Shown here one piece after another: positions 37,967 through 57,695 of a DNA stretch of 64,000 bases. Numbering within the stretch: the stretch's first letter is position 1; every line of letters starts with the position of its first letter. The DNA is from Fidelibacterota bacterium (GTDB lineage: Bacteria > Fidelibacterota > Marinisomatia > SCGC-AAA003-L08 > TS1B11). The stretch covers positions 1,921,403 to 1,985,402 of the forward strand of contig CP070638.1 of NCBI GenBank assembly GCA_020354025.1, read 5' to 3'. The notes beneath the pieces are model-generated. The model ran no database searches. It was not told where the DNA came from and saw only the letters and a list, made by a program, of their open reading frames with translations. A program made the position numbers and the translations under genes.

Positions 37967-37976
37967 GAACATCGCG

Positions 37977-42003: not shown

Positions 42004-42672
42004 CTACTGCTCCGAGATGTGATCAAAGATGAGGGTGCCTGCTAAGGCGAACAGGATAAAAAAGGTGACCATGAGCATCAGCCAGAGATCCCATTCTCTG
42101 AGCGGCCGCCCGGCCAGAGCGGCGCTGGTAGCCCTGGTGGCGGCAATCAGCAGGGGGGCCAGCAATGGAAACAGCAACACGGGCAGCAGGGTCTCACCGG
42201 CAGGGGAGCGTAGGTTCATACCGGCGATAAGGGTTCCCACGGCGGCAATGGCCAGGTCGGTGAGGACGATAATGAGAGCCAGGGAGGCGGGGGCCGCCAG
42301 CAGGGGCATATTCAGGAAGAGACCGAAAAGGGGCAGACTTATCATCTGGGTTGCCAGTAGAAAGAGGAAAAAGGCGGCAGCTTTTCCCAAGTAGATAGCA
42401 CCGCGGCTCACCGGTGCGCTCAGCAGCAGGGAATACGCGTCCAGTTCCTTTTCCCGTCCGAATGATCTGAGCAAACCCAACACCGCGGTGAAGAAGTAGG
42501 TCATCCACATCAAGCCCGGGATGAATGCCTGAAACCGGGCAGGGGCGGCGTTAACAGCGAAGGCAAAAAGCAGAGTGACCGCCGCGGCGAAGATCACCAT
42601 GGCCGACAGGCTTTCCCTGGTGCGTAGCTCTAGGCGCAAATCCTTGAGAAATATAGTCCAGGCAGTCGCCAT
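42004..42672 (-). CDS. ccmB: Heme exporter membrane subunit CcmB
   Basis: A 222-residue protein with six hydrophobic segments, typical of CcmB. Family landmarks are FLKDLRLELRTRESLSAMVIF, FGREKELDAYSLLLSAPVSRGAIYLGK and LPLFGLFLNMP. It works with CcmA in the CcmABCD complex that releases holo-CcmE during c-type cytochrome maturation. It starts with SD GAGGAG and overlaps ccmA by one base (TAATG). It is the last gene of the long minus-strand cytochrome run. Confidence 0.93.
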   Translation of the reverse strand: MATAWTIFLKDLRLELRTRESLSAMVIFAAAVTLLFAFAVNAAPARFQAFIPGLMWMTYFFTAVLGLLRSFGREKELDAYSLLLSAPVSRGAIYLGKAAAFFLFLLATQMISLPLFGLFLNMPLLAAPASLALIIVLTDLAIAAVGTLIAGMNLRSPAGETLLPVLLFPLLAPLLIAATRATSAALAGRPLREWDLWLMLMVTFFILFALAGTLIFDHISEQ

Positions 42673-43376
42673 TACTCCTCTTCGCTTATATACGAGACCA
42701 GATCACTCTCTGTCGACACCGGCGCTTCCCTGCTGATAGTGCCTCCACTGAGCAGGAGCGCCCGCTCAGCCCGGGCTGCTCCCCAGCCCAAATCGTGGCT
42801 GGTAAAGAACACCGTCCGTCCCTGCGAATGCCAGCGAGTGAGCGCATCACTGAGGGTTTGGGTTCCATCGACGTCCAGGGCGGCTGAAGGCTCGTCCAGC
42901 AGGGCCAGCCGCCATGAGGCCAGCTCCAGGCGGACCAGGCCCAGCCGCTGGAGCATCCCTTCGGAGTAGACCCGTATTGGTTCTTCCTCGCGGCCCGCCA
43001 GCCCGTAGCCGGAAAGGAGGGTCTGAAACGTTTCCTCATCCCATGTCTGCCCACGCAGCCGGACGCTGAGCATGAGATTTTCCCGGGCGGTGAAGGCGGG
43101 ATACAGGTTGGGCTGGTGCCCTAGATAGACTACGTCCCGTCGCCAACGGCTGTCAGCGGTAAATAGGATCGATCCGTTGAGGTAGGCGGTTCCCCTTTCG
43201 GGGCGCATAATACCGGCCAGGATTCGGAGTAGTGTGGTCTTGCCGCTGCCGTTGCGGCCGAAAAGCAGGACAGTCTCACCGGTAGCCAGGGAAAATGATA
43301 CGTCCTTCAATACCGGATGCAGGTGAAAAGATTTGTTGATATTTACTGCGGTGAAGAAGCTAGCCAAGTGATTCAA
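42672..43376 (-). CDS. ccmA: Heme exporter ATP-binding subunit CcmA
   Basis: A 234-residue ABC ATPase: Walker A GRNGSGKTTLLRILAG, Q-loop region YLGHQPNLYPAFTARENL, signature-like YSEGMLQRLGL, Walker B LALLDEPSAALD and H-loop FFTSHD. With CcmB it powers the release of heme-loaded CcmE. The first codon is probably TTG, three bases after the previous stop; no ATG is available nearby. Confidence 0.92.
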   Translation of the reverse strand: MNHLASFFTAVNINKSFHLHPVLKDVSFSLATGETVLLFGRNGSGKTTLLRILAGIMRPERGTAYLNGSILFTADSRWRRDVVYLGHQPNLYPAFTARENLMLSVRLRGQTWDEETFQTLLSGYGLAGREEEPIRVYSEGMLQRLGLVRLELASWRLALLDEPSAALDVDGTQTLSDALTRWHSQGRTVFFTSHDLGWGAARAERALLLSGGTISREAPVSTESDLVSYISEEE

Positions 43377-43379
43377 CGG

Positions 43380-43853
43380 TTAGTTCAGCAAACCCCGGCC
43401 GCAGCTGGCGCAGAAGCGGTCCCCGGACGATACCGTTGCACCGCAGCCGGGGCACACATCCCCAACCGCCGTGCCGCAATTGGAACAATACCTGGTACCC
43501 GGCACTATTGGTGCGCCACAGCTCGGACAATCAGAGATCGCCGTTCCATTTTCCGGCGGATTGTGGTTTCCGGGTACACTATCCAGTTCATGCATCACTT
43601 CCGCCACCTCCGCCAAAAGGTCTGTCTTTGTGCGATCAAAATCCTCTTCATTGATAAGGCCCATCTCCCGTTCGAATTCCGCTTCCCGTATTTGCTTGAA
43701 CAGGTTGACCTTGCGCAGCTCAAGCGCGATGGTTCGGTCGGCCTCGTCTTCGCTGACCGGTTTCTCCTTAACTGATAGGAGAGGCACCAGCACGTAGTAG
43801 GTGGCAAAGAGGAAAATCAGGAAAAGAGCCGCGGTAGCCAGCAGTGTATCCAT
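43380..43853 (-). CDS. CcmI-like membrane protein with double zinc ribbon
   Basis: A 157-residue protein: one membrane helix at the N-terminus (LLATAALFLIFLFATYYVLV), an alpha-helical region (ELRKVNLFKQIREAEFEREMGLINEEDF) like the N-terminal part of CcmI, and a C-terminal double zinc ribbon built of four CxxC pairs (CPSCGAPIVPGTRYCSNCG and CPGCGATVSSGDRFCASCG). CcmI holds apocytochrome during heme ligation. The zinc ribbons are not part of classical CcmI and may bind partners or metal. It lies between ccmH and ccmA, with 1- and 3-base gaps. Confidence 0.8.
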   Translation of the reverse strand: MDTLLATAALFLIFLFATYYVLVPLLSVKEKPVSEDEADRTIALELRKVNLFKQIREAEFEREMGLINEEDFDRTKTDLLAEVAEVMHELDSVPGNHNPPENGTAISDCPSCGAPIVPGTRYCSNCGTAVGDVCPGCGATVSSGDRFCASCGRGLLN

Positions 43854-43854
43854 T

Positions 43855-44337
43855 TCAGATGTCCAGATCCTGCATTTCTTTTTCGATCTTATCGATAAAT
43901 TCGTTGTCGTAGGACTTGCGTTCGGCAGGAGCGGATCGCTGAGCTGGAGTCTTACTGCGGCTGATGAAATATACCAGTAGCAGCCCGCCAGCTAGGAGAA
44001 TGGCCGGTGGCATGATGTATGCCAGGAGATTAAATCCCCGGGCTCGGGGGCGGGCAAGGATCCGCTCGCCGTACTGGTTGACAAATAGGTCAATGATTTC
44101 CTCTTTAGTCCTGCCCTCCGCCAGCAATCGGGCAATCCGGGCCTTCACCTGCCGAGCGGCCTCCGAGTCGTGATCACCAACGGTGCTTCCATAGCAGCAG
44201 GGAGCCATGATCTCATACTCCAGCTCCCGCTGCAGGGCATCTTTGCCTATTCCTTCCACTAATGGGGCAGATTGCCCTTCCTGACAGAATGCCATTACCG
44301 GCAGTATGAGTGATAATAGCAGGAAAATGCGAATCAC
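43855..44337 (-). CDS. ccmH: CcmH/NrfF-type cytochrome c maturation protein
   Basis: A 160-residue protein with a signal peptide, the CcmH domain, and a membrane helix at the C-terminal side (LLAYIMPPAILLAGGLLLVYF). In place of the usual LRCxxC thiol motif it has APCCYGSTVGDHDS, adjacent cysteines as in several non-proteobacterial CcmH proteins. The helical part is standard (KARIARLLAEGRTKEEIIDLFVNQYGERIL). It acts in reduction of apocytochrome CxxCH thiols and in ligation with CcmF. It starts at GTG, overlapping ccmF by four bases. Confidence 0.9.
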   Translation of the reverse strand: MIRIFLLLSLILPVMAFCQEGQSAPLVEGIGKDALQRELEYEIMAPCCYGSTVGDHDSEAARQVKARIARLLAEGRTKEEIIDLFVNQYGERILARPRARGFNLLAYIMPPAILLAGGLLLVYFISRSKTPAQRSAPAERKSYDNEFIDKIEKEMQDLDI

Positions 44338-46301
44338 GCCAGTCTCTCTTTCAGTCGTTGATCGGTGCGGCTAGGCCAGATAGCCACCAGAGTGCCGACC
44401 ACTATGATAATGCTCCCCAGCCAAACCATCTGTACCAGGGGATTGATCATGATTTTCAGCGCCACACTATTGTTCTCTCCGCCGATACCGCCAGCGATGG
44501 CGTACAGGTCCTGTAGCGGTCGGGAATGGATGGCTACTTCCGATTGGACCTGGCTGTCCTGCTCGATATAAATCCGCCTCTCGGGTCTTAAGATAGTCAC
44601 CGGCCGGTCATTCCGGCTTACTGAGAGGTCTACAATCCAAGCGCGATGGTTCGTTCGTTCCACTTCGTAATATCGGTCCAGCTTAAATACATATCCTTTG
44701 AGGTAAGTATTTTCTCCCGGTTTGAGGGCAAGCTCCTGTTCAGTGGAGAAGGCCTTGCCAGTAAAGCCTACGAACATGAAAAGAACACCCAGGTGAACGA
44801 TAGCCCCGCCGTATCGGCTGCGGTTCCGGTCAACCATGTTCCGGAAAGCCGTAAGGGTTGACTCGCCGCTGATCCTGCGTCTGGCGCGGATGCCACGGAA
44901 CAATTCGTTGATGATACCCGCGAACACAAAGGCTACCAGGCCAAGGGATAGCAGCGGGTAGATTTGCCGGAGGCCGAGGAGCATGCCACCAGCTGTTGCC
45001 ACAATAGCCGTTGCGACGGGTATGGTTAAATTGCGCTTCAATGTTCCCAAAGAGGTACGCCGCCAGGCCAGGAGAGGCCCTATGCCGACCATGAGCAGCA
45101 GCAGCAGCCCGATTGGGACGGTAGTGCGGTTGAAGTAGGGCGACCCCATGGTGATCTTCATACCTCGTACCGCTTCAGATAGGATGGGGAACATGGTACC
45201 CCATAGTACGGCTAGGGTAAGGGCTACGAAGATCATATTGTTAAATAAAAATCCGCTTTCACGGCTGGTAAACGATTCCAATCGATTCTGAGAAGTTAGC
45301 TCGTCCTTACGTAGGATTACTAGGATGGTGCATGATAAGATGATAAGTAAAACGAAACCGAAAAACCATATGCCCAGTTCGCTGGCGGCAAAGGCGTGCA
45401 CTGAGGAGAGTATACCGCTCCTAGTCAAGTACGTACCGAAGATGGTCAGGATGAACGTGGACATGATGAGGATCACGTTCCACAAGCGGAGCATGTTTTT
45501 CTTCTCCTGGATGCGCACCGAGTGGATATATGCAGTGCCGGTAAGCCAGGGCAGGATGGAGGCATTTTCCACCGGATCCCAGGCCCAGTAGCCGCCCCAA
45601 CCCAGCTCCGCATAGGCCCAAATACCGCCCAGGACGATACCTATCCCCAGGAACATCCAGGGCAGAAGGCTCCAGCGGCGGGTTAAACGGATCCAGTTGG
45701 CATCCATGTGCCTTGTAACCAGCGCCGCGATAGCATACGCAAACGGCACCACAAAGCCTACATAGCCCAGATAGAGTATCGGCGGATGAATTAGCATTAC
45801 AGGATGCTGTAGCAGGGGATTGAGACCCATCCCGCGGCTGGAGGCCCCTGGAGGCAAGAGTGTGAAGGGATTCTCAAAAAAATTGGTGACGATCAGGAAA
45901 AAGAGCATCACTGTCGCGAACACCAGGTTCACTACCAGCATGAGGGAGAGGTTACGGCGACGATTAAGGTAGCCAATCAGGAGGACGTAGATCCCCAGGA
46001 TAGTGAGCCAGAATAGCAGGGAGCCTTCCATACCGGCCCACAGACCAGCAAATTTATACATGGTTGGGGTAGCGGCGCTGCTATAGCGGGCTACATATTC
46101 CAGGCTGAAGTTGCTTGCCATGAGCTGATGAACCAGAGCAAGGGTGGCCACCAGGATCAGGAACGCTGAGACCATCAGTCCCCGTCGGCTCACAAGGGAA
46201 AATCGCAGGTCGCGCTTGACCAGATTAATAAAGCCCGAAACCAGCGCCAAGCTGCAGAAAATCAGGGCCAGTTGCAGGGAAGTTGAACCCAGGAGAATCA
46301 T
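44334..46301 (-). CDS. ccmF: Cytochrome c heme lyase subunit CcmF
   Basis: A 655-residue, multi-helix membrane protein of normal CcmF length. The tryptophan-rich heme-handling motif WGGYWAWDPVENASILPWLTGTAY is intact, and conserved neighbours GLNPLLQHPVMLIHPPILYLGYVG and FGTYLTRSGILSSVHAFA are present, with the heme-ligand histidines in these. It carries heme from CcmE to the CxxCH sites. It overlaps ccmH by four bases and lies nine bases after ccmE. Confidence 0.96.
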   Translation of the reverse strand: MILLGSTSLQLALIFCSLALVSGFINLVKRDLRFSLVSRRGLMVSAFLILVATLALVHQLMASNFSLEYVARYSSAATPTMYKFAGLWAGMEGSLLFWLTILGIYVLLIGYLNRRRNLSLMLVVNLVFATVMLFFLIVTNFFENPFTLLPPGASSRGMGLNPLLQHPVMLIHPPILYLGYVGFVVPFAYAIAALVTRHMDANWIRLTRRWSLLPWMFLGIGIVLGGIWAYAELGWGGYWAWDPVENASILPWLTGTAYIHSVRIQEKKNMLRLWNVILIMSTFILTIFGTYLTRSGILSSVHAFAASELGIWFFGFVLLIILSCTILVILRKDELTSQNRLESFTSRESGFLFNNMIFVALTLAVLWGTMFPILSEAVRGMKITMGSPYFNRTTVPIGLLLLLMVGIGPLLAWRRTSLGTLKRNLTIPVATAIVATAGGMLLGLRQIYPLLSLGLVAFVFAGIINELFRGIRARRRISGESTLTAFRNMVDRNRSRYGGAIVHLGVLFMFVGFTGKAFSTEQELALKPGENTYLKGYVFKLDRYYEVERTNHRAWIVDLSVSRNDRPVTILRPERRIYIEQDSQVQSEVAIHSRPLQDLYAIAGGIGGENNSVALKIMINPLVQMVWLGSIIIVVGTLVAIWPSRTDQRLKERLA

Positions 46302-46310
46302 GTTATGATA

Positions 46311-46733
46311 CTAGTTATTGGTGCCGGGATCGGTACCAGGCGCACCTGCATCTACTTCGTAGCGTGAAGCGCATTTGGTCATGAGGTTATCCGCCGCGAA
46401 AACATCGTCGCGGAACTCACCCTCAATGATTACCTCAACCGAGTCCTGGAACAGGTCCGGCGTCAGGCCGGAGTAGTGAACCGGCAGGACATCATCACCC
46501 TGGACCATGACAAAATCGACACTCAGTTTGTCGGCGGAGTAGACGATAGAGCCTGCTTCCACCAATCCCCCCAGACGCAAGCGGCGCTGTTCCCATCTAT
46601 TCGGATTTTCGTGCAATTCCGCAATACTCACGTAGGGTACCTCTTCCTCTTCGGTCCCGATCGTAAGCCAACCGAAAACAATCAGAGCAACTGCGGCGAT
46701 GAGGATTACGAATTTGGAGCGTTGGCTTTTCAT
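46311..46733 (-). CDS. ccmE: Heme chaperone CcmE, CxxxY variant
   Basis: A 140-residue membrane-anchored OB-fold protein: one N-terminal helix (FVILIAAVALIVFGWLTI), then LRLGGLVEAGSIVY, VHYSGLTPDLFQDSVEVIIEGEF and DDVFAADNLMTKCASRYE. The standard heme-binding His motif (HDENY) is replaced by CASRY, the Cys-type (CxxxY) CcmE known from some sulfate reducers and archaea. A clear SD GGAGGG precedes the ATG. It is the first ccm gene of the run, following the large cytochromes by 119 bases. Confidence 0.92.
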   Translation of the reverse strand: MKSQRSKFVILIAAVALIVFGWLTIGTEEEEVPYVSIAELHENPNRWEQRRLRLGGLVEAGSIVYSADKLSVDFVMVQGDDVLPVHYSGLTPDLFQDSVEVIIEGEFRDDVFAADNLMTKCASRYEVDAGAPGTDPGTNN

Positions 46734-46852
46734 GGGATTATCCCTCCATACGATATTTTCTTTTTACATCCATCAAGGCCTTCCCTCAATGGGCTGATCC
46801 TTTTCATTATCCAATTTACCTATATGTTTTTAATCTTACAGGAAAAATCAGG

Positions 46853-48814
46853 CTATTCGATCTGATGATCCTGGGGTGGTAAATCTTTCAAGGCTTGCTG
46901 GGCAAAGGGAGAAAGCTGATTGTAGGTAATTTCGCCCTTCCGATAGCCTTCCAGTTCACCCTCCAGCTCCTCATAGAATCCGGCGTGCTTGTGGCGCCAC
47001 TCCTCGACGCTCATCTTCCCCGTGCCCATCACTCTGCTGCCCGGGTATTCTTCAGGATGGAAGATGGAGAAAAAGAGATGCCAGATGACAATTGCCAGCG
47101 ATGCCAACCAGGCTTCCCAGTAATGCACAACTTCGGATACCTTGATGAGCCAGACAGGTGTGGCCTCGCCGAGGATTGTTGGGAACCACAGAATGAAACC
47201 TGTGAGACCCATGACCACCGATCCCCATACCAGAGCCCAGTACTCGATCTTCTGGCCATAATCGAACAGGCCGTACTTCACATCGGGCGGACGCCCCTTA
47301 GCAGATGCGCGCATGTTGCGGAAGAAGTCCCGCAGGTCCCGTCCCAGTGGCAACATCCGCAGCAGGTGCTGCCGGCCCCAGGGGCTGACGAGCGCGTAGA
47401 CTATGTGCCACACCGCTACCGCAGCCATGGTCCCGGCCGCAATACGATGGATCAGACCGCGGGCGGTCTCCGATAGTCCGATCGAGCTGAGCAACTGAAC
47501 CCAGCCTGATTCGGGGAATTTGAGGGCGAATCCGGTTATCGCCAGGATAGTGAAGGATATCCGCAGCAGGCTGTGCTGCCAGATTTCCTGTAGAGAGAAG
47601 CGGCGGATAGCAGGAGTGTCCGGTTCACCTCCGGCGCTGATCCTGACCAGCCCGCGCTTGCGCTGCTTCAGGTATCCGGTAAAAATAACTCCGTTATGGA
47701 CCACCATGAAGCCGATGACCCCGATAATGAGCGCCACGTAGATGATTTGTACGATGTCCTCGATCGGCGTCTCCCGGATGAGTACCGAGGAGTGGGTGTA
47801 GGTCTGGGCGAACTGGGTGGTGGCATTGGGATGGCATTGGGCGCAGGTACCTTGCAGGTTGGATGCGTGAATAGTGGAATTTTCATGCTCCTGGCCGAGA
47901 ATGGCGTGCACACCGTGGCAATCGAAGCAGCTGGCGGCTTCTTCATCACCCCGCATGACGGCCAGGCCGTGATAGCTGTCTGAGTAAGTAGCGGCCACGC
48001 CCTCCTGCAATCCGTATTTTAGGGCTAGTTCATCGTCCGAGTGGCACTTCAGACAGGTGTGATCTGCCAGCTCGCGCTTTTTAATGATATCGTAGCGGCC
48101 GGTAGGATCGCTGATTGCGTGTTCACCATGGCAGGTGATGCAGGCTGGCGCATCACGAACCCCGCGCTGGAGAGCTAGCCAGTGATCGCTGCCCTGGAAT
48201 TCCTCGTACTCTTGCAGGTGACACTTTCCGCAGGTCTCCGCCACATTCCAGTAATTAATAGTAGAACGTGAGTGTCGCAGGTTCTGGATATCGTGAGTTC
48301 CATGGCAATCGTTGCAGGTAGCGGAGGCATAGCCTGACTCCTCGAGGACGCTGAAATGTATACTCTGTTTGTAGCGGGTCACCGGATCCAGAATATCGAT
48401 ATTGTGGCGCTCCACCAGCTCCGGATTGGCGTGGCAGCGGCCGCAGGTACTAATCATATTGGCGGAGTGCACCAGCGAGTTGCTATCATCAGCCGGTAAG
48501 ATCTCATGGCTCCCGTGACAATCCACACAGGTGGCCTCATCCGGGGAGAGGCTGTTGAGCTTGAGTCCGTGGACGCTAGCTGAGTGTTCATTCCAGGCAT
48601 CTTCATGACAGCCGCCGCAGGTTTCCTCCTGGGAGAAAACCGGTAGTATCCCTTCATCGATATGTTCTTCCAGCTCGAGTCCGGTGTGGCAGTCCAGGCA
48701 TCCAAAACCTTCGTGAATGGATTCTTCTGTTGAGACCTCATGGCAGTCAAGACAGCTATCATCTTGAGCCCATAGAGGTAAAGCAAAAGCAAGGAGATAA
48801 GCGAGTTTCTTCAT
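46853..48814 (-). CDS. 11-heme cytochrome c fused to b-type cytochrome membrane domain
   Basis: A 653-residue protein. After a signal peptide, residues about 20-345 hold eleven CxxCH sites. A membrane domain follows from about residue 360 with several helices and paired histidines (LLRISFTILAITGFALKFP, LIHRIAAGTMAAVAVWHIVYAL, SLAIVIWHLFFSIFHPEEYP), like the cytochrome b561/formate dehydrogenase gamma family. Joining soluble hemes to quinone-site b hemes suggests quinol-to-periplasm electron transfer. It follows the 17-heme paralogue by three bases. Confidence 0.9.
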   Translation of the reverse strand: MKKLAYLLAFALPLWAQDDSCLDCHEVSTEESIHEGFGCLDCHTGLELEEHIDEGILPVFSQEETCGGCHEDAWNEHSASVHGLKLNSLSPDEATCVDCHGSHEILPADDSNSLVHSANMISTCGRCHANPELVERHNIDILDPVTRYKQSIHFSVLEESGYASATCNDCHGTHDIQNLRHSRSTINYWNVAETCGKCHLQEYEEFQGSDHWLALQRGVRDAPACITCHGEHAISDPTGRYDIIKKRELADHTCLKCHSDDELALKYGLQEGVAATYSDSYHGLAVMRGDEEAASCFDCHGVHAILGQEHENSTIHASNLQGTCAQCHPNATTQFAQTYTHSSVLIRETPIEDIVQIIYVALIIGVIGFMVVHNGVIFTGYLKQRKRGLVRISAGGEPDTPAIRRFSLQEIWQHSLLRISFTILAITGFALKFPESGWVQLLSSIGLSETARGLIHRIAAGTMAAVAVWHIVYALVSPWGRQHLLRMLPLGRDLRDFFRNMRASAKGRPPDVKYGLFDYGQKIEYWALVWGSVVMGLTGFILWFPTILGEATPVWLIKVSEVVHYWEAWLASLAIVIWHLFFSIFHPEEYPGSRVMGTGKMSVEEWRHKHAGFYEELEGELEGYRKGEITYNQLSPFAQQALKDLPPQDHQIE

Positions 48815-48817
48815 ATT

Positions 48818-51436
48818 TTAACTGCTGAAAAAGGTTCCAAATATAATGAATATCAACAACAAAAAGCCAATGGATAGGAATACATACGCGCAGATGAGCA
48901 GGATGTATTTTGTCCATCTGGGCAACGGCTTGACTTTCAAGTTATTGTATTCGTTACCAGTAACAAGGCGTTCCTTCTCAATCGGACGCTCTTCGGCAAA
49001 CCTCTCTTCCGAGAGATAGCCGGTGAAGATGACTTCATCCATAGGAAATGCTCCCGGGCGGAGGTGAGTATTGAAGAAATGAACGGTAAAAATGAACGCC
49101 GTCGCCAGCAAGGCCTCCTCAGAGTGGATTATGTGGGCGGCGTTGATGATCCAGCCCGGGAAAAGCCGGGTGAATGTCTCGGGGAACCAGAGCGTCAGGC
49201 CGCTGGAACCGATGATGACCATACCCCAGACCACGGCGAAGTAGTCGAATTTCTCCCAGTAGGTCCAGCGATCAAACTTCGGCGGTTTCCTGCGCAGGCC
49301 AATGAAGTAGCCCAGGTGCAGGAAGAAGTCCTTAAAGTCCTGGAGATTGGGGACCAGCGATTTGGGACCGTAGAACAGTCCTCTCTCCTTGCGTCCGAGC
49401 CAGCGGTACAGGAGGACAATCAGGTGAATTACGAAGATACTGGCCAGCGTCACAGCGGCGATCCGGTGCAGGATAGCAGCGGTCCCAAGACTGATGAGAT
49501 TATTGACGAACCAGGTGGCCATAGGCGTATGGCTGTATTTCAACGGCAGGCCGGTCGTAGCCAATGTGCCAAAAGACAGGAGTAATCCTAGATGGAATAG
49601 CCTTTGATACGGTTTAAATCGCTTCACCCGATAGGCGGTCTTCACCTTGGGTTGTTTTTTCCCTTCGAAAATGCGCCGTACTAGCAGACGGATCAGCCAT
49701 AGGGTTGTATGGGCGCCGAAAATAGCTAGCGTAACACCCAGCAGCCAGCGCATGAAGGTGTCGATACCTTGTAGGATGGGATTTTCCTTGTGGGCCATCG
49801 GGCTGAAGTGCTGGAGGTAGGAAACGAAATTGATATTCACATCCTCATGACAACGGCCGCACGTTTTCAGGATATTCTCCTCGCTGACGGTGGAGCTCTG
49901 GTCGGAGACGGAGAGCACACTATGGTTATCGTGGCATGAAGCGCAGGTGGCGAACTCTGATCCCTGGTAGCCCAGCTGGTAAACTTGGCCATGGTAGGTG
50001 CTCTGATAGCCGGAGACCACATCCGGATTGAGCTGGAACCGCAGGATGATTTCCCGGTTGCTATGACAGGAGCTGCACAGCTCAACACTGGCTTTCCCCA
50101 TCATACTCTCTTCCGTCTTGGGGATGAGCCGCTCGCCGTGGCAGGTGATGCAGGTGGGGGCCTCTGCGTGTCCCTTGGCGGAGCTGATGCCGTGTACCGA
50201 TTGTTCCCAGGCTTCCTGCTCACCAGGATGGCACTCACCGCAAGCCCGCTTTAGCCCATTAGCCGCCGGGTGCTCCGGTGCCCGATAATGGTACTCGTGA
50301 CACTGGCCGCAGTTAACCGGTTCCCCTGATCTAGCTTGCTCGATTTTTTCTTGGTGAATCACCATATGGGCTTCAGCTGGATCAGCGAGCAATTCCTCCT
50401 CATGGCATAAAAGACACACGTTCGCCAGCCCGGTTTCGAAAATAGATGAGTGTGCGGTGGTCATGTCCGTAGAATGGCCCACATGGCAAGCTACGCAGGT
50501 TTCCAGGCGCGGATCGTCACCCTCTTGTGGGCGGTGAATCGAGACCTCGTAGCCCACATGGCAGCGAGTACAGGTCAGGTCCAGTCTGGCTACCGATACA
50601 AGGCTGTTGGGATCTCTGGGTGACAGCACCCGGTGTTTGGCGTGGCAGTCGGAGCAGACAGGGGCTCTCAGATTGCCCTGTTCGAGCTCCCGGAAGTGCT
50701 GGGAGTCTGTATAGTTGGCCACTTCCTGTTCATGGCATAAGTTGCACGATTCCACCAGATGCATCTTCCACTGCTGGGGCGTGTACTGATCCTTCTCCAT
50801 CTTGAAGTGAGGATGGTGGCAGGAAACACAGGTGACCTCTTGGGTAATATCGCCGACTTTCCAGTGACGGGATGCCAGGAAGTCTTCCAGTATATCCTGA
50901 TGGCACACACCGCACACCTGTCGGGGGTGCCCTTCCCAGGAAACCTGGTGGCGTCCATGACAATCGGAACAGCTGGGGATGGAGGTATATCCCTTCTCCA
51001 TAAGGGGCGCAAAGAAGCCTTCGATGAAGATGGCCTGTTCCTCCTCATGACAGGTACCACAGTCCGGCAGAACCAGGCGTTCCCGATGAGGCCATTCTTC
51101 CACTCCTTCAAGTTCAGTATGGCAGTCGATGCAGGCGAAATCTTCATGCGGGCTGCCCTCCAGATGCTCGCTGGTAACATATAGCGACAGCTCCACGCCA
51201 TAGCGGATCACATTGTGGTCGGGATCGTCATGGCAGGTTTCGCAGGTCTCGTTGTCCTGAGCCCAGGTGTTGTCAGGCCAGAGGCCGGTCAACAAAACGG
51301 TAATTAAAGCGGACCAGATGAAGATCCTGGAGTGACGGGCAATACTGCCCGGTGTGTGGGCTGCACGGCTGGAAGATAAGGCAGCAGGATTAGTTGTTGA
51401 GCTGCTGAGGTCACCTTTAAGGGTTGGCGACAACAT
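48818..51436 (-). CDS. 17-heme cytochrome c fused to b-type cytochrome membrane domain
   Basis: A protein of about 872 residues, starting at ATG 51436 (the GTG one codon upstream is possible). An N-terminal membrane segment (IFIWSALITVLLTGLW) is followed by seventeen CxxCH sites up to about residue 540. A b-type membrane domain then follows (LFHLGLLLSFGTLATTGLPLKY, AILHRIAAVTLASIFVIHLIVLLYR, HFFNTHLRPGAFPM) with histidines placed for two b hemes. It is a longer paralogue of the next gene, and the pair may act as alternative or serial quinol-linked cytochromes. Confidence 0.92.
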   Translation of the reverse strand: MLSPTLKGDLSSSTTNPAALSSSRAAHTPGSIARHSRIFIWSALITVLLTGLWPDNTWAQDNETCETCHDDPDHNVIRYGVELSLYVTSEHLEGSPHEDFACIDCHTELEGVEEWPHRERLVLPDCGTCHEEEQAIFIEGFFAPLMEKGYTSIPSCSDCHGRHQVSWEGHPRQVCGVCHQDILEDFLASRHWKVGDITQEVTCVSCHHPHFKMEKDQYTPQQWKMHLVESCNLCHEQEVANYTDSQHFRELEQGNLRAPVCSDCHAKHRVLSPRDPNSLVSVARLDLTCTRCHVGYEVSIHRPQEGDDPRLETCVACHVGHSTDMTTAHSSIFETGLANVCLLCHEEELLADPAEAHMVIHQEKIEQARSGEPVNCGQCHEYHYRAPEHPAANGLKRACGECHPGEQEAWEQSVHGISSAKGHAEAPTCITCHGERLIPKTEESMMGKASVELCSSCHSNREIILRFQLNPDVVSGYQSTYHGQVYQLGYQGSEFATCASCHDNHSVLSVSDQSSTVSEENILKTCGRCHEDVNINFVSYLQHFSPMAHKENPILQGIDTFMRWLLGVTLAIFGAHTTLWLIRLLVRRIFEGKKQPKVKTAYRVKRFKPYQRLFHLGLLLSFGTLATTGLPLKYSHTPMATWFVNNLISLGTAAILHRIAAVTLASIFVIHLIVLLYRWLGRKERGLFYGPKSLVPNLQDFKDFFLHLGYFIGLRRKPPKFDRWTYWEKFDYFAVVWGMVIIGSSGLTLWFPETFTRLFPGWIINAAHIIHSEEALLATAFIFTVHFFNTHLRPGAFPMDEVIFTGYLSEERFAEERPIEKERLVTGNEYNNLKVKPLPRWTKYILLICAYVFLSIGFLLLIFIIFGTFFSS

Positions 51437-51486
51437 CACTTTTTTCTCAATCCGACTCTAATCTGGATCTGGCAGGTGGGCGCCGA

Positions 51487-52479
51487 TCATGGATAATCGG
51501 CCCGGCCGTTGATATGTTTTTGGGTGTCGATGATACTCAGGTGATCCTCTCCAGCGACCGAAGTATGGCAGTCCCCACAAGCGGACAGCTGCAGATGCCC
51601 AGTGGGTGGGTAGCTGTGACAGGTGGCGCACCGGTTCTCCGCTGTAAGAGTGTCAGTCCAGGTAACAGTCTGGTTATTCCCTACGATGAGGCTGTCGGCA
51701 TAAATCCAGATATTGCTGCTGGTAGCTTTCTCGAACCGGAAATTTCCGTGACAGTACGAATTTGAGCAGGTGGCGCTATTACGGTCCCAGCTCAATGTGA
51801 AGGTGCTATCAGCTGTGGTGGGGATTCCGAAAGGTACTTCCGCGTACGGTGTTTCGTCGATATGCCCCTCTGCCCAGACGGAATCTGGGATCAAATGGCA
51901 AGAAGCGCAGTCAATATTGACGGTCAAACTGTCGGGATGGGTATAGTGGCTGGTATGGGTGCCTACTGTCACCAGATCAGTGCCGGTCTGGTTTCTCACG
52001 TCGATAAAGGAATCGTTAGCTTGGGTATTATGACAGTTATCGCAGGCGAAAATACCTCCAGAAGCGGTATGGCAGGCAGTGTTACTGCAGGCAGACTCTA
52101 CAACGCCGCCTTCCAAGTTCTGGCCGTGGCAAGCCTGGCAGCTGGAGAAATCCCAGTTATTCAGCCAGAAGATGCGTCCGTGGTAGTTATCATGGCTTGG
52201 ATCGATGTATTCCGCCAGCGGGGGATGGGGGATAGCTCCACCATCGCTATGGCATTCACTGCATGCCACTCCTGATGTACCACCGCTGAATTTTTCTCCA
52301 TGGCACTGGACACAGCCAGATAATCCCACAGCACGTATCTTGTCGCCGTGGAATGCATCACTGGGATCGTCCCATTTATCGGGATGAACCTTTCCCCCTT
52401 CGGCCACTTCGGTGCAGCTCCACCAGCCAAAAACCAGACACGCGGCCAGACCGCCGAGTAGGAACCGTTTAGAAAACAT
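51487..52479 (-). CDS. 9-heme cytochrome with CxxCH and CX4CH motifs, likely lipoprotein
   Basis: A 330-residue protein whose signal ends at WWSC, a possible lipobox. Seven CxxCH and two CX4CH sites (CSNTACH and CSNSYCH) are present. The mixed pattern, plus GxLSGCVQCHG and the DNCHNTQAN region, matches the CxxxxCH/CxxCH cytochrome family of Geobacter-type bacteria, which includes extracellular electron-transfer proteins. Its start overlaps the 12-heme gene by 11 bases. Confidence 0.9.
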   Translation of the reverse strand: MFSKRFLLGGLAACLVFGWWSCTEVAEGGKVHPDKWDDPSDAFHGDKIRAVGLSGCVQCHGEKFSGGTSGVACSECHSDGGAIPHPPLAEYIDPSHDNYHGRIFWLNNWDFSSCQACHGQNLEGGVVESACSNTACHTASGGIFACDNCHNTQANDSFIDVRNQTGTDLVTVGTHTSHYTHPDSLTVNIDCASCHLIPDSVWAEGHIDETPYAEVPFGIPTTADSTFTLSWDRNSATCSNSYCHGNFRFEKATSSNIWIYADSLIVGNNQTVTWTDTLTAENRCATCHSYPPTGHLQLSACGDCHTSVAGEDHLSIIDTQKHINGRADYP

Positions 52480-53377
52480 GGCACCCAGCCCTCGTACAGG
52501 TCACGTCCGTGGCCGGTTCGTGGCAGACCACACAATAATCAGGAAGGTCTTCGGCCTCATCATGATGATAGCCGCCATCATCCCTCGTGATTGCCCAGCC
52601 AGGGCTGTTGTGGTTCAGAGGCATAATTAACAAAGACTGATGACAGGTGCGGCAATCCTCGGGCATCGCGTGGCAGGTGCTGCACTCTTTCTCGAAGCCG
52701 ATAAATTCCCCGGCGTGTAAGAACTCGTAATTGGCGGGATGGACCTTCTTTTCCAGCTGCGTCTGGGCATGGCAGGACTCACAGTCAGCTTGCTGATGGC
52801 ACATAGAGCACTCGCTATCGCTTCCTCTTTGGGTGAACAATCCATGAACCTCAGGCCAGTCCGGGTCATGGCTGGTGGGCAGCTTCTCTTTCAGGGAAGC
52901 GTGGCAGGTATAGCAGCCGGCATCGGTGAGGGGCACAGCGTGGCAGTCCATGCAGGATTCCATCTCCGGCGGTGTCCGTGGCACCAGGGCTTCGCTACCG
53001 GCCGTGGTGGCATGACACCGCTCGCATAATATATCTTCCGTTAGGTGGATCTGATGTGGGAACACCAAGTCGGGTGTGGTCTGCCAGGTATAGGTAGTTG
53101 GCTGATCGGGTTGGGTATGGCAGGCGGAACACTCCTGCGTTGCTGTATCATCATCATGGCAGGCGAAGCACTGGTCCATGACCGGCAGCAAGTCGTGGCT
53201 TACTTGTGTGCTCGTTTCCAAACCTTCATGGCACTCGTTGCACTCAAGACCCATATCATCAACATGGGCCAGATGGGAGAAAATGATGCGGTCAGTGGCG
53301 TCAGTTCCGATGCTCTGAGCGACCAGGTAACCTGCAGAGACCAGGAGGGCTACGATTATGAGGCTACTATAGCGCAT
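52469..53377 (-). CDS. 12-heme periplasmic cytochrome c
   Basis: A 302-residue protein with a signal peptide (SLIIVALLVSAGYLVAQ) and twelve heme sites, eleven CxxCH and a final CTRAGCH. About one heme per 23 residues is dense, typical of electron-wire cytochromes such as MtrA/OmcA types. Histidine-rich spacing (FSHLAHVDD, FPHQIHLTE, LHAGEF) supplies distal ligands. It begins 11 bases inside the barrel gene, so it is co-translated with that gene, consistent with insertion into the barrel as in MtrA-MtrB. Confidence 0.9.
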   Translation of the reverse strand: MRYSSLIIVALLVSAGYLVAQSIGTDATDRIIFSHLAHVDDMGLECNECHEGLETSTQVSHDLLPVMDQCFACHDDDTATQECSACHTQPDQPTTYTWQTTPDLVFPHQIHLTEDILCERCHATTAGSEALVPRTPPEMESCMDCHAVPLTDAGCYTCHASLKEKLPTSHDPDWPEVHGLFTQRGSDSECSMCHQQADCESCHAQTQLEKKVHPANYEFLHAGEFIGFEKECSTCHAMPEDCRTCHQSLLIMPLNHNSPGWAITRDDGGYHHDEAEDLPDYCVVCHEPATDVTCTRAGCHVF

Positions 53378-54608
53378 AGCTCACCTGCAATCCGACCCTG
53401 CCGTCCTGTTTGAAATACCGGTTCTGGGCATATTGGCCAAAAAGGCGATAGCTCCAATGACATCCCAAGGTTCCTTGGACCCAGAAAGACGCCATCAGTG
53501 CCGACAGGTCTTCCTTAGTAATCCCCAGATCCGACACCGCCTGGGATTGCTCATCATACAGGGCGTATGTATTGGCTCCAAGGCTGAGTCCTACTCTGGT
53601 TCTTTTGAATAGCGTATGTTGCCCACTCAACAGTAGATACTGACTCCCGTAGATGGACTGTGCTCGGGATTGCCAGGCTACGGCTAGCCTGCCCCAGGCA
53701 AGCCGGGCGGAGATATAGTGGCCCGAACGCTTTCCCAGCCGCTGTACGAGATTCAGACGGAGTTGTATGGTACTTATGACCCGGACGTTCAAGCCCGCGG
53801 CGAGGGCGTGACGCGGGTCCGGTAGCTCGTCAGCCATAGGGTAGGCGATTATAGTCAGATGCTGGGAATACCGGTATTGGACATGGGTGCTGACTTTCGG
53901 TGTTAGTCTTATCTGGGTTCGGAGCCGGATTTTGTCAATTGATGGGTGTAACAGGCCCAAGGCCAAATCGGCTATTTGGATGATGCGCCGTCCGAAACGT
54001 CTTCGCAAGGTACTGCCGATATATAATCTGCGCTCGCCACCCATTTCATTGGTCCACAACTGGAGCGACGTGTGGGATGGACCTGCCATGCGCCGGTACA
54101 GACCACCGGCCACTACTGTTCCGGCGTCACCGTAATCCGTGCCAAGCTCGTTCTGGGGCGTTACGCCGGCATACAGGGTGATCAGTCGTTGATCGCTGAA
54201 GGACCCTTTCCGCCGGTTCAGGGTGAGCCCGTCAAACCTGGTCGTGTGGAGCGCGTCCCACTGGATCTGCCGGCCGATGATTGTTTTCCAAGTGGGATTC
54301 AGTCGGATCTGTACGCGACCCGAATAGAGGTGCGGGCCAGCGGGACGGATCATAGTGGTGGGCATAACATCCCCAAGCATATACCAGCTCAGCCGTTCAC
54401 TGAGATGATGGCGTATGGTAAACTGCCCCCGCCAGACTAGGGTTTCAGCTGCGGTCAGATCGCTGCGTGGGTAAACCAGGCCGCTCTGAAGGACCACCGT
54501 CGGTCGGTTGGCTTTGACACTGGAACCTGCAAGAAGTAGCCAGATCAGGAACACCGCGATGGAGCGTGATGCGATTAAGTAAGTTCTATATTGTGGATGT
54601 CCTGCCAT
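53367..54608 (-). CDS. Probable outer-membrane beta-barrel (porin of the cytochrome conduit)
   Basis: A 413-residue protein with a signal-like N-terminus (SIAVFLIWLLLAGSSVKA), no CxxCH, and an alternating, amphipathic pattern with aromatic girdles (WYMLGDVMPTT, HYISARLAWGRLAVAWQSRA, THVQYRYSQHL). It ends in VGLQVSYAL, a strand with terminal Leu, as outer-membrane barrels have. It leads the cytochrome genes and overlaps the 12-heme gene. No sequence family can be named; the role as an MtrB-like sheath is inferred from topology and position. The start codon lacks an SD. Confidence 0.75.
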   Translation of the reverse strand: MAGHPQYRTYLIASRSIAVFLIWLLLAGSSVKANRPTVVLQSGLVYPRSDLTAAETLVWRGQFTIRHHLSERLSWYMLGDVMPTTMIRPAGPHLYSGRVQIRLNPTWKTIIGRQIQWDALHTTRFDGLTLNRRKGSFSDQRLITLYAGVTPQNELGTDYGDAGTVVAGGLYRRMAGPSHTSLQLWTNEMGGERRLYIGSTLRRRFGRRIIQIADLALGLLHPSIDKIRLRTQIRLTPKVSTHVQYRYSQHLTIIAYPMADELPDPRHALAAGLNVRVISTIQLRLNLVQRLGKRSGHYISARLAWGRLAVAWQSRAQSIYGSQYLLLSGQHTLFKRTRVGLSLGANTYALYDEQSQAVSDLGITKEDLSALMASFWVQGTLGCHWSYRLFGQYAQNRYFKQDGRVGLQVSYAL

Positions 54609-55023
54609 AAAGGAGAGGAAAGTTAAATATATCAGGACAACGAACTCAAATTTATTTATTGCTTGGAGTAAGCAAACTCTGCCGGTCTTGGGAGAGGGGA
54701 CATGGGGCTATGCCTTGTAATCGGATATCCGAGTTTAAGTCCATTCAGCCAACAACTATCTGAATCCCCAAATACTTCAATTCTTCTCTGAAGTTTACCT
54801 GCTGATATGGTGCCACCAGTATGATACCTTGAAATGAGACTTAAATGTCTTGTTAGCTATTGAAAAATCGATTAGCTTAAATGATAATTTACTTCCCGGT
54901 GTGGCAGGATAGAATCTTTCGTTGGCTGAGCCTTCTGTCATTAGGGGTAACCATTCTCTATAGCATAGCTCCTTTAAAACGGTTCGGGAAATATTAAGTA
55001 AAATCATTTATTGGGAGATGAAA
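54609..55023. promoter_or_regulatory. Divergent intergenic region of the cytochrome locus
   Basis: About 400 bases separate the two divergent cytochrome runs and must hold both promoters. AT-rich tracts (54850-54900) would suit promoter elements, but I could not fix -35/-10 pairs or an operator. No supported gene is present. Confidence 0.4.
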
Positions 55024-55641
55024 ATGTTTAGGGTGCTTACAATATTGCTGGTATTCTCCTGCTCGGTGCTCTTTGCGCAACAGGACGAATTTTCCTATAT
55101 GGGCGTCAATAACTGCAAGATGTGCCATAATAAAAAGGATAAAGGTGCCCAATTCAATGTCTGGAGTGAGGGTCCCCATGCCAGGGCCTTTGAAACCCTC
55201 AAGAGCGAGGAAGCCCTTAAGATCGCCACTGAACTGAAGCTAGAGGGATCGCCTCACGAAGCCGGGGAATGTCTAGGGTGCCACACCACTGGATGGGGCA
55301 AAGCCGACGGTTATGAGGTGTTGAGTGCGGATTTTATTGGTAATCCCAAGAATGCCAGAGCGGTAAAAAAGAATGATTCCAAGGCCAATGTTGGCTGCGA
55401 GACCTGCCACGGTCCCGGAAGTGGGTACAAATCCAAGAAAACCATGAATGGGATTTTTAACGGTGCAATCGATCCCGCGACCGTTGGACTATTTGCTCCT
55501 GAGAAGAACGTCTGCATAACGTGCCATAACGAAAAAAGCCCGACTTTTAAGAAATTTGACTTCGATGCTATGGCAGCCAAGATTGCCCATCCGTACCCTG
55601 AGGAGTTCAAGGCCACGAAAGGAACTCCTGGGGGAAAGTAA
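55024..55641 (+). CDS. Tetraheme cytochrome c, c554-like
   Basis: A 205-residue protein with a signal peptide (LTILLVFSCSVLFAQ) and four CxxCH sites (CKMCH, CLGCH, CETCH, CITCH). The layout NNCKMCHNKKDKGAQFNVW, GSPHEAGECLGCHTTGWG and NVGCETCHGPGSGY is that of cytochrome c554-like proteins. I chose ATG 55024 because GGGAG lies six bases before it; ATG 55018 would abut the SD. It probably serves as a mobile periplasmic carrier. Confidence 0.92.
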   Translation: MFRVLTILLVFSCSVLFAQQDEFSYMGVNNCKMCHNKKDKGAQFNVWSEGPHARAFETLKSEEALKIATELKLEGSPHEAGECLGCHTTGWGKADGYEVLSADFIGNPKNARAVKKNDSKANVGCETCHGPGSGYKSKKTMNGIFNGAIDPATVGLFAPEKNVCITCHNEKSPTFKKFDFDAMAAKIAHPYPEEFKATKGTPGGK

Positions 55642-55727
55642 AGCCCTTCCGCTAATCATACAGGTACGCATTCATTTGATGGTTCTGTGTCACTAGTCAT
55701 AAGGGGCCGATTCATTTTCTTCTGAAC

Positions 55728-57629
55728 ATGAGCCCCAGGGTTCGTAAGCGAGTTATCGTCGTCTTGGCCGTCGTGGTGACCGTGCCCATCATTTTCTGGG
55801 GTGCGGCGGAGTATACATCGCGCCCAAAATTCTGCAACAGCTGCCATTATATGGAGCCGTTCTATGAGAGCTGGCAGCTGTCCTCCCACTCTGATGTCAC
55901 CTGTACTTTTTGCCACTTCGAGCCGGGACTCGCCGGTAAGATTGAGGGCAAGCTCAACGGCCTTTACCAGCTAACCAAATACGTCTCGCTTGCTTATAAA
56001 AAGAGCAAACCGTGGGCGGAGATTTCCGATGCCTCCTGTGTCCGTGAAGGCTGCCACGACACACAAACCCTGCTTGGTCCCATCCGGTTCAAGAACGTAA
56101 AGTTCGACCATAGCCATCACCTCGGGGAACTACGGCGGGGAAAACAACTGCGCTGCACCAGCTGCCACTCCCAGATGGTCCAGGGCAGTCATATCCTGGT
56201 AACAGAGGAAACCTGCTTCCTGTGCCACATGAAAGACCGGGGAGAGACACCCGGGATGTTCAACTGCCGCACCTGCCACACTGACGAAATCTTTCTGGAA
56301 ATGGGCAGCCAGCTGCGCTACAATCATACCGCAGTGGTGGAAACGGGCAAGCCGTGCGAATCGTGCCATGTAAACACGGTTGAGGGCAACGCTTCGGTCT
56401 CCACTCAGAATTGCATCAATTGCCATTGGCAGACCGATTTCTTTGAACGCTACGATGATCCCGAATTCCTGCATAAGAATCATGTCACCGATCATAAGGT
56501 AGAATGCATCGCATGCCATACTCCGATACTACATCAGGTCCAGCGGAAGCACCTGCTAACCGGGGAGGACTGCCGTTCCTGTCATCAGGATCAACATGCA
56601 GCCGAAGCCCAGCTTTTCGCGGGTCTGGGAGGGATTGGCATTCCCCAACAGCCCAATCCGATGTTCACCGCGGGTCTCTCCTGTCAGAGCTGCCACATCT
56701 TCCACGAGGAGAACGTAGGTGGCGGTGAAACCATGGTCTCCAACGCTGACGCCTGCGACCAATGCCATGGGCAGGGCTATGGTCGCCTGCTGCAGAACTG
56801 GGAAACTTACCTTATTCATCTGGAGGCGGACGTGATCAGCTATCTGGATCAGGCCCGTACCGGTCTTGATCAGCGGGGGGGGCTGATCCCTGAGCAGGAG
56901 GAGGTCTTGGAGCGGGCGAATCAATATATTCAGCTGGTATCATCGACCCGTGGCATCCATAATATCCAGCTCAGCGATAACCTGCTTAAAACCGCCCACG
57001 AACTGATCTCCCGGAGCCTGCAGCAGGCCCATCTGGGAAACCTTGCCCGGGAATATGTCTCAAGTGGCCAGCTGGTACCCTCGGACTGCGCCAACTGCCA
57101 CTTCGGTATTGAAGAGATCAACATCGAGGTCTATAACTTGAATTTCCAGCACGGGCGGCACCTGACCAATGGAGTTGCCTGCACCAAGTGCCACTCCAAT
57201 CTCCGGGTGCACGGTGAACTGCTGCATACCAGGGCTGAATGCCTGAACTGCCATCACAGCCAGGAAGAAAAAGACTGCTCGACATGCCACCGCAAGCAGC
57301 AGCAGCTTCTTGCGGGGGAGACGACCTTTTTCACAAACGATCCCGATTTCATGTGGGCCGAAGATATCACCTGCCAGGACTGTCACATGGCTGATTCCGG
57401 TATTATACGCCGGGAGCCCGAATTATGCGCCGATTGCCATGATGATAGCTATACCGCAATGGTATTGGAGTGGCGGGATGAGATTCGAACACTTCTCAGC
57501 TCCCTTCCAGATAAACAATACCGGGAGCTTAAAGAATGGTTAACTTCCGAGGGCAGCTTAGGAGGTCATAATCCACAGGCTGTTATTGATCATCTTGAGG
57601 AAACACTCAAGACATCGCCACGACCGTAA
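55728..57629 (+). CDS. 18-heme NapC/NirT-anchored cytochrome c
   Basis: A 633-residue protein with an N-terminal anchor helix (VIVVLAVVVTVPIIFWGA) and a first heme region FCNSCHYMEPFYESWQLSSHSDVTCTFCHFEPG that matches the NapC/NirT quinol-dehydrogenase pattern. Altogether there are 17 CxxCH and one CX4CH (CVREGCH). An interruption without hemes between the twelfth and thirteenth (about residues 355-445) is helical and may be a dimerisation or partner domain. It likely takes electrons from quinol. Confidence 0.92.
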   Translation: MSPRVRKRVIVVLAVVVTVPIIFWGAAEYTSRPKFCNSCHYMEPFYESWQLSSHSDVTCTFCHFEPGLAGKIEGKLNGLYQLTKYVSLAYKKSKPWAEISDASCVREGCHDTQTLLGPIRFKNVKFDHSHHLGELRRGKQLRCTSCHSQMVQGSHILVTEETCFLCHMKDRGETPGMFNCRTCHTDEIFLEMGSQLRYNHTAVVETGKPCESCHVNTVEGNASVSTQNCINCHWQTDFFERYDDPEFLHKNHVTDHKVECIACHTPILHQVQRKHLLTGEDCRSCHQDQHAAEAQLFAGLGGIGIPQQPNPMFTAGLSCQSCHIFHEENVGGGETMVSNADACDQCHGQGYGRLLQNWETYLIHLEADVISYLDQARTGLDQRGGLIPEQEEVLERANQYIQLVSSTRGIHNIQLSDNLLKTAHELISRSLQQAHLGNLAREYVSSGQLVPSDCANCHFGIEEINIEVYNLNFQHGRHLTNGVACTKCHSNLRVHGELLHTRAECLNCHHSQEEKDCSTCHRKQQQLLAGETTFFTNDPDFMWAEDITCQDCHMADSGIIRREPELCADCHDDSYTAMVLEWRDEIRTLLSSLPDKQYRELKEWLTSEGSLGGHNPQAVIDHLEETLKTSPRP

Positions 57630-57695
57630 TTCTATAAGACGGCATTTGACTGTACACGGCAGCGTCTTTTCAATTATAAACGAGTATCGACCCAG

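What the first reader, a model, noticed from the sequence alone, without database searches (positions are those of the whole stretch)
42004..54608. One minus-strand run joins an outer-membrane barrel, four multiheme cytochromes and Ccm genes
Seen: genes run barrel, 12-heme, 9-heme, 17-heme-b, 11-heme-b, ccmE, ccmF, ccmH, CcmI-like, ccmA, ccmB, mostly overlapping or within a few bases (largest gaps 47 and 119). Known: porin-cytochrome complexes such as MtrAB-C carry electrons through the outer membrane, and Ccm attaches heme. Inference: a complete electron conduit packaged with its own maturation machinery. I know no named system with this gene set and the two b-fused giants, so it is the best candidate for an undescribed system here.
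Basis: partly seen in the sequence, partly recalled or inferred. Interest (0 to 1): 0.85.

Follow-up and report, generated by a model that had tools for sequence, protein, structure and literature searches.

The report
Outer-membrane electron conduit in Marinimicrobia
A bacterium of the uncultured phylum Marinimicrobia carries a conserved set of genes that look able to wire its respiration to something outside the cell; the parts are of known kinds but the combination seems unreported in this phylum, and the neighbouring heme-attachment genes turn out to be a relocated housekeeping set rather than part of the wire.

Summary
In detail: all eleven minus-strand genes lie where stated, with the stated heme counts and gaps. 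The 53367-54608 product models as a 22-strand outer-membrane barrel (pLDDT 80). Barrel, 12-heme and 9-heme lipoprotein form a porin-cytochrome conduit; the two "b-fused giants" are CbcL/MtrH/MtoC-type quinone-linked cytochromes, a published family that sometimes clusters with conduits. Of 20 class genomes with the 17-heme-b protein, 19 also have the barrel. Related sets occur in other phyla. The Ccm link is not part of the system: in eight examined relatives the ccm genes stand elsewhere; here ccmC was left behind with a scar holding ccmE and ccmB remnants, and the window holds the only other ccm genes. Still, 22 of 24 closely paired CXXCH motifs of the genome are at this locus, so these cytochromes are Ccm's main clients. 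Most likely function: quinol oxidation coupled to extracellular reduction. New variant of a known kind.

The parts
53367..54608 (-). outer-membrane beta-barrel (porin of the conduit), 413 aa, 22 predicted strands
   Evidence: AF2 model pLDDT 80.1, pTM 0.70; Foldseek hits only to large outer-membrane barrels; signal-like N-terminal helix; no Pfam/NCBIfam match
52469..53377 (-). periplasmic 12-heme c-type cytochrome (c7/c3-like), in the MtrA/OmaB position
   Evidence: 11 CXXCH + 1 CX4CH; all 12 sites aligned in family relatives, 11 in other families; phmmer to 3ov0
51487..52479 (-). 9-heme lipoprotein, probable outer-membrane/surface cytochrome of the conduit
   Evidence: 7 CXXCH + 2 CX4CH; lipobox-like stretch ending in Cys-Thr/Ser/Asn-Glu conserved in relatives while heme number varies from 4 to 25+
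48818..51439 (-). 17-heme c-type domain fused to FdnI/HydC-like cytochrome b, CbcL/MtrH/MtoC type
   Evidence: PF01292 and TIGR01583 in C-terminus; 10 invariant His in the membrane part; 56-79% identity in 9 relatives
46853..48814 (-). 11-heme c-type domain fused to FdnI/HydC-like cytochrome b, CbcL/MtrH/MtoC type
   Evidence: PF01292; aligns to E. coli FdnI 1kqf_C; membrane His 373, 414, 456, 470, 564, 579 invariant
55018..55641 (+). 4-heme cytochrome (C554-like), start of the divergent half of the module
   Evidence: PF13435; orthologue directly upstream of the 17-heme-b gene in G058, G056, G054, G013, G059, G050
55728..57629 (+). 17-heme cytochrome with NapC/NrfH-like N-terminal anchor (probable quinol dehydrogenase / periplasmic wire)
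   Evidence: PF03264, TIGR03153; orthologue directly follows the 17-heme-b gene in several families; co-occurs with it
57696..58472 (+). 8-heme membrane-anchored cytochrome
   Evidence: 55-58% identical orthologues in the cluster of G054 and G020
58430..59221 (+). ferredoxin-like 4Fe-4S subunit
   Evidence: PF13247; 67-68% identical orthologues in the cluster of G054 and G020
59218..60429 (+). NrfD-type membrane quinone subunit
   Evidence: PF03916; 75% identical orthologues in the cluster of G054 and G020
60478..61404 (+). membrane protein with C-terminal zinc ribbon, downstream of nrfD; role unknown, membership uncertain
61711..63762 (-). 9-heme cytochrome with type IX secretion sorting tail, probable exported surface cytochrome
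   Evidence: PF18962 tail and MtrC/MtrF-like domain match; tailed multiheme proteins also beside the cluster in L027, L033, L054
46311..46733 (-). ccmE (relocated housekeeping Ccm)
   Evidence: PF03100; ancestral place elsewhere in relatives
44334..46301 (-). ccmF (relocated housekeeping Ccm)
   Evidence: PF01578, PF16327; only ccmF in the genome
43855..44337 (-). ccmH (relocated housekeeping Ccm)
   Evidence: PF03918; only ccmH in the genome
43380..43853 (-). CcmI-like with two zinc ribbons (moved with ccm)
   Evidence: TIGR03142 below cut-off, PF12773
42672..43376 (-). ccmA (relocated housekeeping Ccm)
   Evidence: PF00005
42004..42672 (-). ccmB (relocated housekeeping Ccm)
   Evidence: PF03379

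Best explanation
The locus 46853-60429 (probably to 63762) is an extracellular electron transfer module of a Ca. Neomarinimicrobiota bacterium. Shown by sequence: a large outer-membrane barrel, a 12-heme periplasmic protein and a 9-heme lipoprotein encoded together; two CbcL-type c/b fusions; a divergent operon with a NapC/NrfH-like 17-heme protein, an 8-heme protein, an FeS protein and NrfD; conservation of these genes as one cluster in other families. Inferred: quinol is oxidised in the inner membrane by the CbcL-type proteins and/or the NrfD-FeS-cytochrome complex, electrons pass over the 17-heme and 4-heme proteins to the 12-heme wire threaded through the barrel, and leave by the lipoprotein tip and the T9SS-tailed 9-heme protein to an extracellular acceptor. 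Two or three different quinone entry modules may serve acceptors of different potential, as CbcL and ImcH do in Geobacter. The adjacent ccmEFHIAB is the cell's only copy of those genes, moved here within this species' lineage; it matures these and the other multiheme cytochromes together with the distant ccmC.
For: Barrel fold. Domain assignments. Cluster barrel-c12-c9-(c4)-b17-(c17)-(c8-FeS-NrfD)-b11, with parts optional, in seven or more other genera of the class. 19 of 20 genomes with the 17-heme-b protein also have the barrel, about 4 expected (genomes are related, so the p-value overstates). Related sets outside the class: Electryonea L049, Bacteroidota L078, Ignavibacteriales L122. Lipobox conserved in the tip protein while its heme number varies, as published for Pcc outer-membrane cytochromes (PMC4245776). 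No heme-copper oxidase, one cytochrome bd, an nrfHA-like pair and no NarG/NapA-like enzyme recognised, so the locus is the largest respiratory outlet seen. Ccm relocation.
Against: No sequence match of the barrel to MtrB or other named conduit porins; link to the Ignavibacterial barrel only suggestive (hhalign E 0.01). No complex was modelled; the 12-heme model was poor. No expression, redox or physiological data; direction of flow is not readable from sequence. Family members G003, G006 and G008 keep the conduit without the b-fused proteins, so the parts are separable.
Confidence: 0.75

Rival explanations
1. Same conduit run inward: extracellular electron uptake (Fe(II), sulfide, a partner cell), with the CbcL-type proteins acting as quinone reductases like MtoC.
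For: [quoted passage not shown] Cytochrome bd and nrfHA-like genes could take up the electrons.
Against: No heme-copper oxidase. Two CbcL-type proteins plus a NapC-like and an NrfD module resemble sets of quinol outlets. Neither Cyc2 nor CO2 fixation was searched for.
Confidence: 0.2
2. The conduit serves extracellular sulfur compounds (elemental sulfur or polysulfide) rather than metals or partner cells.
For: In L026, L027, L031, L032, L033 the barrel is preceded by an 8-10-heme protein and a lipoprotein with rhodanese domains; Pcc systems have been proposed for sulfur and selenium acceptors (PMC4245776).
Against: Neither of those two genes was found in the window, and the multiheme one would probably have shown in the genome pattern search.
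Confidence: 0.12
3. One reading: a purpose-built package of conduit plus dedicated Ccm.
For: Compact same-strand run; 22 of 24 paired heme motifs of the genome at this locus; in a KSB1 contig ccmE and ccmF also stand near such cytochromes (L084).
Against: In G001-G005, G008, G054 and G056 ccm stands elsewhere, together with a ccmC-sized gene; here ccmC stayed at that place with ccmE/ccmB remnants; ccmF groups within the genus; no ccm in the cluster of the class relatives.
Confidence: 0.07
4. The barrel is an ordinary porin and the cytochromes form an inner-membrane/periplasmic quinone-cytochrome system without outer-membrane transfer.
For: Foldseek matches are general porins and other barrels; b17-like proteins occur in many Bacteroidota contigs without a recognised barrel nearby.
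Against: Barrel, 12-heme and lipoprotein genes overlap or adjoin and stay together in 13 loci, also where the quinone parts are missing.
Confidence: 0.1

Closest known systems
Porin-cytochrome complexes (Pcc), e.g. OmbB-OmaB-OmcB of Geobacter and the Ignavibacterium album cluster IALB_1837-1839 (PMC4245776)
   Same: Gene trio of a mid-size barrel (18-22 strands published, 22 here), multiheme periplasmic protein (5-14 hemes published, 12 here), very variable outer-membrane cytochrome with atypical CXnCH motifs; other cytochrome genes attached
   Different: No detectable sequence homology of the barrel to a named family; two CbcL-type proteins and one NapC/NrfD module in the same conserved cluster; an atypical heme motif also in the periplasmic member
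CbcL/MtrH/MtoC family (PMC6295460)
   Same: N-terminal multiheme c domain plus membrane cytochrome b of the FdnI/HydC type; known to cluster with mtrAB in some species
   Different: Two different members side by side (17 and 11 hemes); the 11-heme one seems, by reading its hydrophobic stretches, to have 5 rather than 6 membrane segments
MtrCAB / MtoAB / PioAB
   Same: Barrel plus periplasmic multiheme wire plus (in Mtr) a surface cytochrome
   Different: 22 strands against 28 predicted for MtrB/MtoB/PioB, 12 hemes against 10 (PMC4245776); no match to an MtrB family in Pfam or to MtrA-type models above cut-off
Ccm system I
   Same: ccmE, F, H, I-like, A, B present
   Different: ccmC is 0.54 Mb away; the CcmI-like protein carries zinc ribbons; CcmH has APCCYG where the usual motif is RCxxC, as in its relatives (usual motif from general knowledge)

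Membership tests
Porin-cytochrome complex (Pcc) | outer-membrane beta-barrel of about 18-22 strands | tested here: met
   22 strands in AF2 model
Porin-cytochrome complex (Pcc) | adjacent periplasmic multiheme c-type cytochrome | tested here: met
   12 heme sites, signal-like N-terminus, overlapping gene, kept together in relatives
Porin-cytochrome complex (Pcc) | outer-membrane multiheme cytochrome in the cluster (most cases) | tested here: met
   9-heme protein with conserved lipobox; localisation itself not tested
Porin-cytochrome complex (Pcc) | sequence homology of the porin to OmbB/ExtB/ExtI types | tested here: inconclusive
   No Pfam/NCBIfam match; weak profile match to an Ignavibacterial barrel; Geobacter porin sequences were not at hand
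[quoted passage not shown]
   needs proteoliposomes or mutants
MtrCAB/MtoAB | MtrB/PioB family barrel and MtrA-type decaheme protein | tested here: not met
   no barrel family match; 12 hemes; best NCBIfam match QrcA below cut-off
CbcL/MtrH/MtoC | multiheme c domain (3-23 hemes) fused to FdnI/HydC-like membrane cytochrome b | tested here: met
   for both proteins
CbcL/MtrH/MtoC | conserved membrane histidines as possible b-heme ligands | tested here: met
   invariant His in 10 aligned sequences each
CbcL/MtrH/MtoC | quinone oxidoreductase activity | not testable with these tools
   biochemistry needed
Ccm system I | full set including ccmC at the locus | tested here: not met
   ccmC only at G000:C1:2508.9 kb

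The most novel reading that the evidence does not exclude
Phyla of the FCB group share a distinct class of electron conduit: a 22-strand barrel unrelated to MtrB, an 11-14-heme wire and a variable lipoprotein tip, served by two CbcL-type modules plus a NapC/NrfD module and continued outside by T9SS-exported multiheme cytochromes; and in this species selection moved the only ccmEFHIAB block next to its main clients.
Probability: 0.35. Interest if true: 0.7.

Novelty: new variant of a known kind. Interest (0 to 1): 0.5.

Why it matters
No paper in the searched library reports extracellular electron transfer genes in Marinimicrobia. If the module works as inferred, part of this widespread uncultured phylum can respire solids or partner cells, and the gene set (barrel profile, 17-heme-b protein, NapC-like 17-heme protein) gives a direct marker for it. 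The ccm relocation with its scar is a clear case of maturation genes coming to lie beside their main clients.

Tried and rejected
12-heme structure prediction: pLDDT 58, not used. Barrel against viral structures: nothing of use. Barrel in plasmids: no match. Promoter/terminator scans: counts near the shuffled expectation, not used as evidence; a weak promoter-like site in the 119-bp gap cannot decide whether ccmE has its own start. That gap resembles neither the ancestral ccmE leader nor the sequence after b11 in relatives. Horizontal origin of the ccm copy: rejected, ccmF groups inside the genus, on a longer branch. An assembly chimera at the b11-ccmE junction is unlikely, because the old ccm place carries a true deletion scar, but no second assembly was at hand to check it.
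Full report
Observation. The 12-heme count needs one CX4CH motif; that site is a CXXCH in most relatives and its Cys/Cys/His are invariant in all 13 aligned sequences, so it is a real site. The 9-heme count needs two CX4CH motifs, as in the Geobacter CxxxxCH family it matches. The barrel candidate, without any domain match, was modelled from an alignment of 13 positional orthologues: 22 long beta-strands, mean pLDDT 80.1, with Foldseek matches to large outer-membrane barrels.

Host. The nearest named relatives carrying the cluster are Candidatus Neomarinimicrobiota MAGs. The window's own genome is one contig of 3.40 Mb.

What the two fusions are. The C-terminal parts of both large proteins match cytochrome b561/FdnI models (PF01292, TIGR01583), and the 11-heme one aligns to E. 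coli FdnI over the whole domain. A multiheme c domain followed by such a b domain defines the CbcL/MtrH/MtoC family, published with 3-23 hemes in 15 phyla and sometimes next to mtrAB (PMC6295460).

The missed half. In G020 the order is barrel, c11, c19, b17, c17, c8, FeS, NrfD, b11 on one strand; G054 has the same with the 4-heme gene; G056, G058 and G050 have barrel, c11, tip, c4, b17, c17, b11. In the class, 34 genomes of 171 searched have the barrel and 20 the 17-heme-b protein, 19 of them with both. Within the window's family, G003, G006 and G008 keep barrel-12-heme-tip without any b17 match in the genome, so the outer-membrane trio is a unit of its own. Outside the class, similar trios stand next to b17/b11-type genes in Electryonea (L049), a Bacteroidota MAG (L078) and an Ignavibacteriales MAG (L122). 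Homology of those barrels to this one is only suggestive.

The tip protein. Its length and heme number vary from about 140 aa with 4 hemes to 820 aa with 25 or more, but the N-terminus keeps a hydrophobic stretch ending in a lipobox-like Cys followed by Thr/Ser/Asn and usually Glu and, a little further, HP..W in most. Such diversity of the outer-membrane member, and its atypical motifs, are published traits of Pcc systems (PMC4245776). A 9-heme protein with a type IX secretion tail closes the region (61711-63762); tailed multiheme proteins stand beside the cluster in three further loci.

The ccm genes. Only one ccmH and one ccmF exist in the genome and they are in the window; ccmC is 0.54 Mb away. 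In G001, G002, G003, G004, G005 and G008 the ccm genes lie in one run downstream of a GCS2-type gene and end in ccmC, with a GAPDH-like gene beyond where the stretch reaches; G054 and G056 also have ccm elsewhere than the cluster. In the window's genome that place holds GCS2, a 157-base scar and ccmC, with flanking proteins 72-83% identical to those of G002. The scar holds a ccmB 3' remnant (alignment score 81 against a maximum of 27 in 1000 shuffles) and a ccmE 5' remnant (protein score 48 against a maximum of 38 in 2000 shuffles). The window ccmF groups inside the genus, on a longer branch. The simplest account is a copy of ccmEFHIAB placed beside the cytochromes, followed by deletion of the old one. 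The linkage is thus species-level, not a conserved trait of the conduit. It may still be useful: 22 of 24 closely paired CXXCH motifs of the genome are at this locus; the others are in an nrfHA-like pair at 809 kb, and a 10-heme protein at 2217 kb was found by profile.

Mechanism. Shown: gene content, fold of the barrel (predicted), domain types, conservation of the cluster. Inferred: quinol oxidation by the b-type and NrfD modules, transfer over periplasmic hemes, passage through the barrel, exit by the lipoprotein and the exported cytochrome. The genome has no heme-copper oxidase, one cytochrome bd, and its molybdopterin hits are in a complex I operon and in a formate-dehydrogenase-like setting judged by reading the neighbouring proteins, so an outward respiratory use is favoured over uptake, at about 0.65 to 0.2. 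Multiple entry modules may match acceptors of different potential, as shown or proposed for CbcL and ImcH (PMC6295460).

Novelty. The searched library has no paper joining Marinimicrobia with multiheme extracellular electron transfer; absence from this open-access set does not prove absence elsewhere. Parts and working principle are known; the combination, the unassigned barrel family and the host range are new. Hence a new variant of a known kind, interest 0.5.

Noticed in passing
L123:7441-7597 (G000:C1 about 2509.4 kb): 157-base scar at the ancestral ccm place with ccmE 5' and ccmB 3' remnants beside a surviving ccmC.
   Followed up: yes
window 61711-63762: 9-heme cytochrome with a type IX secretion sorting tail; similar tailed multiheme proteins next to the cluster in L027, L033, L054. 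One literature search found no paper joining type IX secretion and multiheme cytochromes.
   Followed up: partly
L026:4005-6203, L027, L031, L032, L033: An 8-10-heme protein and a rhodanese-domain lipoprotein precede the barrel in several relatives, hinting at sulfur chemistry; absent from the window.
   Followed up: partly
window 43380-43853 and 60478-61404: The CcmI-like protein and a second membrane protein both end in zinc ribbons.
   Followed up: no
window 43855-44337: CcmH has APCCYG in place of the usual RCxxC motif, shared by its relatives.
   Followed up: partly
L058, L065 and other Bacteroidota loci: Named strains of Draconibacterium and Maribellus carry 19-heme relatives of the 17-heme-b protein with a 7-heme, a NrfH-like 6-heme and a 4-heme gene but no recognised barrel nearby: possible cultivable hosts for testing.
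   Followed up: no
window 34515-41756: Heavy-metal RND efflux operon (CusCBA type) ends just downstream of ccmB, on the other strand.
   Followed up: no
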